Program-made: the position numbers and the translations under genes
Shown here: positions 9,674 to 29,805 of the stretch, piece by piece
How the letters are laid out: every line of letters starts with the position of its first letter
Position numbering within the stretch: the stretch's first letter is position 1
The notes under the pieces: model-generated
Told to the model about the DNA's origin: nothing
The model's input: the letters and a program-made list of their open reading frames with translations, nothing else
Databases searched by the model: none
Source: Catellicoccus marimammalium M35/04/3
Lineage (GTDB): Bacteria; Bacillota; Bacilli; Lactobacillales; Catellicoccaceae
DNA length: 64,000 nucleotides
Reading direction: 5' to 3'
NCBI RefSeq assembly: GCF_000313915.1
Contig: NZ_AMYT01000019.1
Location: 1 to 64,000, forward strand

Positions 9674-9967
9674 CTAATTCAACCAAATTCCCATAGAAGA
9701 AATCCCTTTCGCTAGATTCCAATAGCGTTCTCCTCGGTCCGTAATGGCTTGATATAACTGTTTTACAGACTGTGGAACTTTGTTTTTATGTTTAATAACA
9801 TAGGGAGTCAAAATATAGACTAGCTGAGAACAAATACAGGATAAACTATTCTTTTCATCTCGTAATGCTCTTCCTTCTTTGGCTAATAAATGTTTTAATT
9901 CAATTTCCACCGTTTGATCTTCTAAGACACCAACAATCAAAGACATCAATTTCTCTTCTTGTTTCAT
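9674..9967 (-). CDS. Small protein resembling bacteriocin immunity proteins (EntA_immun type)
   Basis: A 97-residue, soluble-looking, mostly helical protein. The segment VYILTPYVIKHKNKVPQSVK followed by LYQAI resembles the C-terminal half of class IIa (pediocin-like) bacteriocin immunity proteins, which are four-helix bundles of about this size. No bacteriocin, leader peptide or export gene is adjacent, so if the match is right it would be an orphan immunity gene. Its GGAGG (9972-9976) abuts the T-tract of the serS terminator, so it probably depends on read-through from serS. A second ATG at codon 8 is possible. The family call rests on pattern only. Confidence 0.4.
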   Translation of the reverse strand: MKQEEKLMSLIVGVLEDQTVEIELKHLLAKEGRALRDEKNSLSCICSQLVYILTPYVIKHKNKVPQSVKQLYQAITDRGERYWNLAKGISSMGIWLN

Positions 9968-27701: not shown

Positions 27702-27902
27702 TTATTTCCAAAAATCTTTTCTATTTTTTCTATAATCAGTAACTCTTTTTTTAGACATGATTTTTGCTTTTTTAATCGAGCCACATTTTATCCAATCATG
27801 AATAAAATAAAAAACTAAAGAAAACGCACCATCAAAATATACATTTACCCAAAAATATAAGGCAATTAAAACAACACACAATAAAACAATAAATATTACC
27901 AT
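27702..27902 (-). CDS. Small membrane protein A of the tandem cluster (type Y)
   Basis: 66 residues. One N-terminal hydrophobic helix (IFIVLLCVVLIALYFWVNVY) and a second less hydrophobic stretch lead to a lysine/arginine-rich tail. The ATG has AGGAG 7 nt upstream. The start and leader lie in a 141-bp repeat shared with the 28892-29089 gene, whose product is a paralogue. TATAAT at 27989-27994 (minus strand) is a promoter candidate about 87 bp upstream. I do not recognise the family, and no function should be assigned. Confidence 0.6.
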   Translation of the reverse strand: MVIFIVLLCVVLIALYFWVNVYFDGAFSLVFYFIHDWIKCGSIKKAKIMSKKRVTDYRKNRKDFWK

Positions 27903-28024
27903 GACTGATCTCCTACACTACTTTCTAACGTAATCTCTACTAATAACGTTAAACCTTTCTTTCCATGTCTTTTTCACATTATTACTATATTATATTCACT
28001 ATTTTACTTAGAATCTTTTTTATT
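27884..28024. repeat. 141-bp direct repeat, copy 1
   Basis: About 95% identical (seven differences by eye) to 29071-29211. It covers the start of gene A, its leader and promoter, and reaches the stop of the next gene. Confidence 0.9.
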
Positions 28025-28221
28025 TATCGCCATTTATATTTATCCATCTTACTGGAACAAAATAAAACTTGCCAAAAAGTACAAATGACCATATTTTTAA
28101 AGCGATCAAAAGTCTTATCCTTAATCAATAAAAATTCAATCATATGGATAACGAGTAATCCCAAATAACAACTCAACCAAATACCAAAAATAGATATAAC
28201 AATAAAAATTAAAATTGCCAT
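28024..28221 (-). CDS. Small membrane protein B of the tandem cluster (type X)
   Basis: 65 residues. N-terminal hydrophobic helices (ILIFIVISIFGIWLSCYLG...) are followed by FDRFKNMVICTFWQVLF, a short amphipathic segment that recurs in the cluster (TFWSLF in the 28639 gene), and a basic tail. GGAG lies about 11 nt before the ATG, and a TATAAT (28304-28309, minus strand) about 85 bp upstream. Unknown family. Confidence 0.55.
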   Translation of the reverse strand: MAILIFIVISIFGIWLSCYLGLLVIHMIEFLLIKDKTFDRFKNMVICTFWQVLFCSSKMDKYKWR

Positions 28222-28324
28222 ATATTACCAAACTCCATTTCCCCTGCATCATCAATGACAAATGATATAACTTTTTTCCTTTAAAATCTTCTTCTACATT
28301 ACTATTATATTACATAAAAAATTT

Positions 28325-28370
28325 AGCCTCGAATTCGAATTATAGGACGACAACCCTATCGAGGAATTTT
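28325..28370. terminator. Bidirectional hairpin in the 28222-28638 gap
   Basis: CCTCGA and TCGAGG close a structure with an inner CCTA/TAGG pair. T-runs lie on both outer sides (ATTTTTTTG on plus, AATTTTTT on minus). Apart from this, the next terminator and the gene B promoter, the 417-bp gap has no gene I can support. Confidence 0.6.
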
Positions 28371-28490
28371 TTTGTCTTTTTGTATGAAATCATTAAATTC
28401 ATGCGATTACTCTAAATATAAAAAAACAACGGAAATAGAAAATCATGATATAATCTATATTGAAAAGAATACTAGACAATTATGTCAAAA

Positions 28491-28525
28491 CAAAAAGGAC
28501 GAGGCTATCACCTCGTCCTTTTACT
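28491..28525. terminator. Strong bidirectional terminator inside the small-protein cluster
   Basis: AAAAAGGACGAGG/CCTCGTCCTTTT hairpin with a 6-nt loop. A TATAAT on the plus strand at about 28449 could produce a ~65-nt RNA ending here. Confidence 0.75.
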
Positions 28526-28638
28526 TTTGTTCACTCAAAAGATTTTATTTAAACTTGTTCTTAGAACTATTTTCTCTTAGAGTTAAGCCATTCAATAATA
28601 TAATTTGCAATTATACTTCAACTCAAAGTCTTTTTATT

Positions 28639-28851
28639 TTACTTTTTAAATTTGCTAATCATACCAAAAAGACTCCAAAAAGTATTAGAAATCATTTTCT
28701 TCAAATCTTCTTTCCAATTACTTTTATCTTTTTGTGTTAATAAATAAAAAATTAAGCTAATCAAAAATGATACACTATAATAACTAATAAATAATCCAAT
28801 TAAGGCTAGTATAATCACTAAAAAAATATTCATATTATGAAAAATATTCAT
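28639..28851 (-). CDS. Small membrane protein C of the tandem cluster (type X)
   Basis: About 70 residues from the ATG at 28851, which has GGAG 9 nt upstream; an ATG at 28866 overlaps that SD. The hydrophobic region NIFLVIILALIGLFISYYSV continues into a second span, followed by LKKMISNTFWSLFGM and a basic end. It shares the TFW-x-LF segment and the leader pattern (AACTCCATTT on plus) with gene B. Unknown function. Confidence 0.55.
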   Translation of the reverse strand: MNIFHNMNIFLVIILALIGLFISYYSVSFLISLIFYLLTQKDKSNWKEDLKKMISNTFWSLFGMISKFKK

Positions 28852-28891
28852 ACGATCCAACTCCATTTTCTTACACCATTAACGACATAGA

Positions 28892-29089
28892 TTATAACTT
28901 CTTATTTTTTCTATACAGTAAAATTTCAGCTTTTGCTTTTTCTTTAGCAAAGGAATAATTATGCTGTACCCAATTTTTAATAAAATGATAAACAATAATA
29001 ACCAAATAATCTCTAATATCAGTAACTTTAGCATAAAAAATAAAAAATATAATAACTAAAATAATTAGACAAACAATAAATATTACTAT
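28892..29089 (-). pseudogene. Small membrane protein D of the tandem cluster (type Y), start codon changed to ATA
   Basis: 65 sense codons closely parallel gene A: I/MVIFIV..., a hydrophobic helix, an IVYHFIKNWV segment like FYFIHDWIK in A, and a basic tail ending RKNKKL. At the position of A's ATG this copy has ATA (29087-29089), although AGGAG and the leader are preserved. Either the gene has lost its start or uses a non-standard ATA/ATT start. It is missed by start-codon-based gene finding. Confidence 0.6.
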
Positions 29090-29211
29090 GACCGATCTCC
29101 TACACTACTTTCTGACGTAATCTCTGCTAATAACGTTAAACCTTTCTTTCCATGCCTTTTTGACATTATTACTATATTATATTCACTATTTTACTTAGAG
29201 TCTTTTTTATT
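29071..29211. repeat. 141-bp direct repeat, copy 2
   Basis: Partner of 27884-28024, offset 1187 bp. Contains the start region of gene D, leader, TATAAT (29176-29181) and the end of gene E. Confidence 0.9.
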
Positions 29212-29460
29212 AGCTTTTCGTTTCTTATATTTTTCCATCCATTGTAAAAGGTAAATCGATTTCCAATCTTTTTTAAAACTTTCTATCGAACAATCTAAAC
29301 CTTTTGGTAAATAAATAATGAAATCTAATATACTAAAGAAAAAAGTATAAACGATATTTCCACCTAAAATAAAAAATGGCAGTAATACTAAAAAAAGAAT
29401 AATCGCTAATATGAAATAAAATCCTGTTGAAAAAAAATCACTTACTGATATTAATACCAT
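29191..29460 (-). CDS. Small membrane protein E of the tandem cluster
   Basis: 89 residues. A long hydrophobic N-terminal region with two likely membrane helices (FYFILAIILFLVLLPFFILG and the following stretch) leads to IESFKKDWKSIYLLQWMEKY and a lysine-rich end. The layout (membrane part, aromatic amphipathic segment, basic tail) matches its neighbours. GAGAGGG lies 12 nt before the ATG. Its 3' end falls inside the 141-bp repeat. Unknown function. Confidence 0.6.
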   Translation of the reverse strand: MVLISVSDFFSTGFYFILAIILFLVLLPFFILGGNIVYTFFFSILDFIIYLPKGLDCSIESFKKDWKSIYLLQWMEKYKKRKANKKDSK

Positions 29461-29523
29461 CGATGACTATCCCTCTCTTATCATTTTACTTATAACCACT
29501 TTATTTACTTACTATTCACATTT

Positions 29524-29805
29524 TTATTTTTTCTTTTCTTCTTGTTCTTGATTGCTTCTTTTTTTATCCAAAAATTTTGGTTTATGTGGCAATAAAAATA
29601 CATACCATATATCATTTTTAAGAGTCTGAACAAATTTTTTATGCGCTCTTTCTTTTTCTTCTGCAGATTTATCTTTTCCACCAAAAACATAAACAATAAA
29701 ATATTGTAAAGTATCAGATACAATCAATCCAATATATCTAAGTATAAGTAATATAAAGATACAAATAGCAAAAAATAATATCGCCGCAATAATCTCATCT
29801 ACCAT
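29524..29805 (-). CDS. Small membrane protein F of the tandem cluster
   Basis: 93 residues and the first of the cluster in the direction of transcription. The N-terminal helix (IIAAILFFAICIFILLILRY) and second span (LIVSDTLQYFIVYVF) are followed by a charged cytoplasmic-type region with FVQTLKNDIWYVFLLP and a Lys/Glu-rich tail. GGGAG lies 6 nt before the ATG, the best SD of the group. No promoter is clear upstream; read-through from rbsU past its terminator is possible. Unknown family. Confidence 0.65.
   Translation of the reverse strand: MVDEIIAAILFFAICIFILLILRYIGLIVSDTLQYFIVYVFGGKDKSAEEKERAHKKFVQTLKNDIWYVFLLPHKPKFLDKKRSNQEQEEKKK

What the first reader, a model, noticed from the sequence alone, without database searches (positions are those of the whole stretch)
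27702..29805. Tandem cluster of six small, rapidly diverging membrane-protein genes of unknown function
Six minus-strand genes (65-93 codons) share one plan: one or two N-terminal membrane helices, a short aromatic amphipathic segment (TFWQVLF, TFWSLF, DIWYVF) and a lysine-rich tail. At least two subtypes (A/D and B/C) are visible, and genes A, B and D have their own TATAAT about 85 bp upstream. Local duplication, divergence and individual promoters resemble arrays of immunity, toxin-like or phage-defence membrane proteins. I recognise no family.
Basis: partly seen in the sequence, partly recalled or inferred. Interest (0 to 1): 0.8.

Follow-up and report, generated by a model that had tools for sequence, protein, structure and literature searches.

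The report
Species-specific array of small membrane proteins
A gull-gut bacterium carries a row of six small, fast-diverging and partly broken membrane-protein genes found nowhere else we searched; other copies are scattered in its genome, one perhaps next to genes resembling defences against bacteriocins, so they may be a decaying self-protection kit, but this is unproven.

Summary
Six minus-strand ORFs of 65-93 codons lie at 27702-29805, far beyond chance (five ATG+Shine-Dalgarno ORFs of at least 63 codons against 0.005 per shuffle). Corrections: g4 has lost its start codon (ATA); TATAAT boxes are not above expectation; a 141-bp 95% repeat explains two of them. The genome is Catellicoccus marimammalium CCUG 49459T, by exact contig lengths. 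New: the families are dispersed. g6 has a nonsense-broken paralogue at C19:144 kb, g2 an intact one at C19:38 kb (49% identity, pN 0.32, pS 0.74), g3 a wrecked one behind glmS, g1/g4 probable relatives at C19:144.8 and C20:115-116 kb. No homologue in 398 Lactobacillales genomes or in pattern scans of GTDB species and IMG/VR; no Pfam, NCBIfam, PHROG or PADLOC family. The C20 relatives are tandem and divergently paired with genes related to enterocin-A-type immunity proteins; small membrane ORFs flank 2-3 of 5 such loci here (p about 0.02-0.001), but not generally in other genomes. Best reading: a lineage-specific, birth-and-death array of small membrane proteins, probably orphan bacteriocin/toxin immunity. 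Gene family shown; immunity inferred.

The parts
29524..29805 (-). g6: 93-aa membrane protein, A-type; paralogue at G000:C19:144485-144748 carries an in-frame TAG but keeps LPHKPKFLDK after it
29191..29460 (-). g5: 89-aa membrane protein, no paralogue found; same position after the A-type gene as the 40-aa ORF G19 on C19 (144.8 kb)
28892..29089 (-). g4: 65-codon frame, g1-like, start codon ATA instead of ATG: probable start-loss pseudogene
28639..28866 (-). g3: 75-aa membrane protein, g2-like; wrecked relative at C8:1115-1258 after glmS
28493..28522 (-). intrinsic terminator after g3 (13 pairs); separates g6-g3 from g2-g1
28024..28221 (-). g2: 65-aa membrane protein; intact paralogue (69 aa, 49% identity) at C19:38.5 kb
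27702..27902 (-). g1: 66-aa membrane protein, g4-like; probable relatives G19 (C19:144.8 kb) and M1/M2 (C20:115-116 kb)
29071..29211 (-). 141-bp direct repeat, copy 1: end of g5, intergenic, first six codons of g4
27884..28024 (-). 141-bp direct repeat, copy 2 (95%, 7 differences): end of g2 region, intergenic, first six codons of g1

Best explanation
The cluster is a lineage-specific, birth-and-death array of small inner-membrane proteins of Catellicoccus marimammalium. Each has one long N-terminal membrane helix, then an amphipathic aromatic helix and a basic tail, which by the positive-inside rule should lie in the cytoplasm. At least two groups are present (g6, g2, g3; and g1, g4), with dispersed paralogues at three or four other chromosomal sites, some intact and some broken. 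Shown: reality of the frames, paralogy, dispersal, decay, absence from all other genomes searched. Inferred: the proteins are orphan immunity factors against membrane-active bacteriocins or secreted toxins of competitors in the gut. Each would sit in the membrane and shield the receptor or pore site for one toxin type; loci multiply and diversify while a toxin is around and decay when it is gone.
For: Frames beyond chance. g2 and its C19:38 kb paralogue: 49% identity, pN 0.32 against pS 0.74; differences pooled over three coding pairs are fewest at codon position 2 and most at position 3 (p 0.0017, though two pairs share g2). g6 paralogue 41-43% identical. Broken members: g4 start loss, A19 in-frame TAG, g3-like remnant after glmS; TAG is an ordinary stop here (71 of 313 long ORFs). 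No homologue in 398 Lactobacillales genomes, nor by degenerate-pattern scans of GTDB species genomes (22, 58) or IMG/VR (36-39, 59, 76). Immunity link: the g1/g4 profile finds M1/M2 (E 0.015), each in a near-identical 726-bp tandem unit with a divergent gene whose family resembles EntA_Immun (hhalign 91.6%), beside a near-threshold EntA_Immun gene (21.4 of 22.1 bits). Small membrane ORFs flank 2 of 5 such loci in this genome (3 with a broken one): p 0.02 or 0.001 against a 404-kb sample. Literature: many two-peptide-bacteriocin immunity proteins are small transmembrane proteins (PMC2806384), and pneumococcal blp immunity genes include short membrane proteins (PMC4860687).
Against: The link to immunity passes through one weak homology (g1/g4 to M1/M2; hhalign only 29%). 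The small membrane ORFs at C8:65 kb share the plan but not detectable homology. In 20 immunity loci of other genomes, small membrane ORFs are not clearly commoner than in controls (8 of 20 against 5 of 19). No double-glycine bacteriocin precursor was seen in about 500 kb of this genome, and no cognate toxin lies beside the array. For g1/g4, pN equals pS, compatible with pseudogenes.
Confidence: 0.4

Rival explanations
1. Lineage-specific small membrane proteins with a housekeeping-like or regulatory role (membrane stress, partner of a transporter) that merely duplicated; not immunity.
For: Real paralogous families under some constraint; scattered beside unrelated genes such as glmS, P-type ATPases and zinc-ribbon proteins; no toxin nearby.
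Against: Rapid divergence and frequent breakage are unusual for a conserved cellular role; C20 pairing of probable relatives with immunity-like genes.
Confidence: 0.3
2. Hydrophobic type I toxins controlled by antisense RNAs (Ldr/TxpA/Fst-like), in tandem and dispersed copies.
For: Small, one long helix, basic tail, tandem plus dispersed; 5' regions of g1/g4 95% identical while coding parts diverged.
Against: 65-93 aa is long for the group (background knowledge); no Rfam match; no enriched promoters on either strand; the repeat also takes in the end of the preceding gene, as a segmental duplication or conversion would.
Confidence: 0.12
3. Mostly dead sequence: AT-rich relics whose frames remain open by chance and recent duplication.
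For: g4 start loss, A19 nonsense, g3-like wreck; g1/g4 substitution pattern neutral; AT-rich random frames encode Phe/Ile/Leu/Lys.
Against: Shuffles almost never give such frames; g2 and its distant paralogue show constraint.
Confidence: 0.13
4. The genes encode leaderless bacteriocins or other secreted antibacterial peptides.
For: Small, cationic, aromatic, tandem.
Against: Very hydrophobic uninterrupted N-terminal helix (19-residue Kyte-Doolittle 2.5-3.1), which fits a membrane anchor; no dedicated exporter or immunity gene beside the array.
Confidence: 0.05

Closest known systems
Short membrane-protein immunity genes of the pneumococcal blp bacteriocin immunity region (blpL, blpX, blpZ, pncG, pncM; PMC4860687)
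   Same: Several short, diverse membrane-protein genes in one cluster; immunity role mostly putative there too
   Different: No database family links them to the array; no bacteriocin precursors, BlpR-type regulation or CAAX protease seen beside the array
Enterocin-A-type immunity proteins (EntA_Immun, PF08951)
   Same: Present in the same genome in at least four loci, one paired with probable g1/g4 relatives
   Different: Soluble four-helix proteins; the array proteins are membrane proteins and do not match PF08951
Membrane immunity proteins of type VII secreted membrane-depolarising toxins (ExiCD for EsxX in S. aureus; PMC12744356)
   Same: Membrane-bound protection against a membrane-active toxin is the proposed way of working
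   Different: No sequence match to any such family; presence of a type VII system not tested
Type I toxin families (TxpA, Ldr, Fst)
   Same: Small hydrophobic helix plus charged tail, tandem or dispersed copies
   Different: Longer here, no Rfam antitoxin match, no Pfam match

Membership tests
Small membrane bacteriocin-immunity proteins (two-peptide/blp kind) | Short protein with transmembrane helix or helices | tested here: met
   Hydropathy 2.5-3.1; AF2 model of g2: helix 2-32 and helix 38-61, pLDDT 77
Small membrane bacteriocin-immunity proteins (two-peptide/blp kind) | Encoded next to the cognate bacteriocin gene(s) | tested here: not met
   No precursor beside the array, no GG-leader-like small ORF in about 500 kb held; orphan immunity genes would lack it too, so it is not filed as a member
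Small membrane bacteriocin-immunity proteins (two-peptide/blp kind) | Confers protection against a bacteriocin | not testable with these tools
   Needs an expression and sensitivity assay
Small membrane bacteriocin-immunity proteins (two-peptide/blp kind) | Genomic association with other immunity genes | tested here: inconclusive
   2-3 of 5 EntA_Immun-like loci in this genome have small membrane ORFs, not clearly enriched in other genomes; the array itself has none next to it
EntA_Immun (PF08951) | Match to the Pfam model over its cut-off | tested here: not met
   No match for g1-g6
Type I toxin-antitoxin | Antisense or adjacent antitoxin RNA | tested here: inconclusive
   No Rfam family, no promoter enrichment; a new RNA cannot be excluded
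Anti-phage defence systems | Match to PADLOC models or phage families | tested here: not met
   None in PADLOC; only weak PHROG matches with E 0.025 or worse

The most novel reading that the evidence does not exclude
A new family of lineage-restricted small membrane immunity proteins, working with or in place of soluble EntA-type immunity proteins, and spread as single genes or two-gene units into many intergenic sites of a reduced gut-symbiont genome by duplication and turnover.
Probability: 0.25. Interest if true: 0.55.

Novelty: new member of a known kind. Interest (0 to 1): 0.36.

Why it matters
If the inference holds, the genome would be a readable record of past toxin encounters: a reduced symbiont keeping and discarding orphan immunity genes without making the toxins. 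It is also a concrete case of orphan small membrane proteins whose reality can be shown from dispersed paralogues within one genome when no relatives exist elsewhere.

Tried and rejected
Matches in other genomes (G010/G120 at E 1.5e-4, G377 at 1.4e-4) and in SecA and DUF4396-like regions of the own genome were inspected and are chance hits, out of frame or antisense, or inside unrelated genes. Weak Pfam/NCBIfam matches (VTT 19.4 of 33.9 bits; TraL 18.6 of 30.95) are below cut-off and reflect hydrophobic helices. A LytTR-type double site in the 141-bp repeat was considered (ACGTTA repeated) but the period is 18, not the 21-22 known to me. N1/N2 at C8:65 kb as homologues of g2/g3: not supported. 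General EntA_Immun/small-membrane association in other genomes: not supported. TAG read as sense: rejected, TAG is a common stop here. Fold search of the g2 model gave nothing; solved-structure search gave nothing; Rfam gave nothing. The g6 model is too poor to use (pLDDT 65).

Full report
Naming. In the outputs my working letters run the other way (A=g6, B=g5, C=g4, D=g3, E=g2, F=g1).

Where this is. The window is G000:C17:1-64000. Contigs C19 (153,794 bp) and C15 (308,478 bp) have exactly the N50 and maximum contig length published for the Catellicoccus marimammalium CCUG 49459T draft, a gull-gut lactic acid bacterium of 1.29 Mb (PMC3569323). No other member of its family is held, so close comparison was impossible.

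Are the frames real? Five of the six have ATG and an SD-like sequence. Dinucleotide shuffles of the region gave 0.005 such ORFs of at least 63 codons on average, never more than one, and the opposite strand has none. Composition is 24.6% G+C against 33.0% for the window, so hydrophobicity and lysine tails alone would not be informative; the frame test and the paralogues are. The substitution pattern between g2 and its distant paralogue (pN 0.32, pS 0.74) and between g6 and its paralogue (pN 0.37, pS 0.52) points to coding constraint, and pooled differences are fewest at codon position 2 and most at position 3 (p 0.0017; the pairs g2/E19 and g3/g2 share g2, so this is approximate). g1/g4 show no such bias.

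Decay. g1 and g4 share a 141-bp segment at 95% identity, running from the end of the preceding gene to codon six. One of its seven differences turns the ATG of g1 into ATA in g4; no other usable start precedes the hydrophobic segment. Beyond the segment the two proteins are only about 34% identical. This is best read as a segmental duplication or gene conversion.

Dispersed paralogues in the same genome. A g6 relative at C19:144485-144748 lies between two P-type ATPase genes, carries an in-frame TAG, and keeps the motif LPHKPKFLDK after it; it is followed by a 40-aa membrane ORF, as g6 is followed by g5. A g2 relative of 69 aa at C19:38.5 kb is intact. A g3 relative after glmS on C8 is frameshifted and truncated. 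g1/g4-like proteins are the 40-aa ORF and, more weakly, M1/M2 (79 aa) on C20. With hydropathy-preserving shuffles the pairs g6-A19, g2-E19, g3-g2, g4-g1, g4-M, g6-g2 and g6-g3 stand out, giving two groups: g6/g2/g3 and g1/g4/M; hhalign gives 64% for g6-type against g2-type. g5 stands alone.

Outside this genome. Profiles found nothing credible in 398 Lactobacillales genomes; the best chance hits lie out of frame in unrelated genes. Degenerate-pattern scans of GTDB species genomes and IMG/VR were empty, though such scans find only fairly close relatives. No Pfam, NCBIfam or PADLOC model reached a cut-off and no PHROG match was significant.

Link to immunity. M1 and M2 lie in two near-identical 726-bp tandem units, each with a divergent 109-aa gene; that gene's family aligns with EntA_Immun-like proteins (hhalign 91.6%), and an EntA_Immun gene just below cut-off lies beside them. 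The genome has further EntA_Immun-like genes, one in the window at 9674-9967. Small membrane ORFs flank two of five such loci, three if a broken one is counted; a 404-kb sample predicts 0.05 per locus (p 0.02 or 0.001). I chose the flank size after seeing the loci, so these p values are indicative only. A check in other genomes did not show a general association (8 of 20 against 5 of 19 controls).

Mechanism. Shown: membrane-protein-like sequence; an AlphaFold model of g2 with a long N-terminal helix (2-32) and a second helix (38-61), pLDDT 77. Inferred: the N-terminus anchors the protein, the aromatic helix and basic tail lie on the cytoplasmic face, and each protein blocks one membrane-active toxin at its receptor or pore. 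Literature supports small membrane immunity proteins as a kind (PMC2806384, PMC4860687), but no sequence relation was found.

Verdict. A real, species-specific, rapidly turning-over family of small membrane proteins; immunity against bacteriocins or secreted toxins is the most likely single function (about 0.4), with a cellular role, type I toxins and mere decay as rivals.

Noticed in passing
window 9674-9967 (-): Orphan enterocin-A-type immunity gene (PF08951, 27.3 bits, over cut-off) between deoB and serS.
   Followed up: partly
L077:8557-11063 (G000:C20:114556-117062): Immunity-like array: one EntA_Immun-like gene and three related 109-110 aa genes, two of them in near-identical 726-bp tandem units with a divergent 79-aa membrane protein.
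   Followed up: yes
L097:6244-7258 (G000:C15:86.2-87.3 kb): Two EntA_Immun-like genes with a small membrane-protein frame between them that carries an in-frame TAG.
   Followed up: partly
L098:4895-5856 (G000:C8:64.9-65.9 kb): Two small membrane ORFs (65 and 62 aa) on either side of a weak EntA_Immun-like gene next to polA; one has a strong SD and its own terminator.
   Followed up: partly
window 27884-28024 and 29071-29211 (-): Both repeat copies contain an open stretch (V)KK(T/A)WKERFNVISRDYVRK just before the SD, with three of four differences at third positions; may be a relic of a g2/g3-type gene.
   Followed up: no
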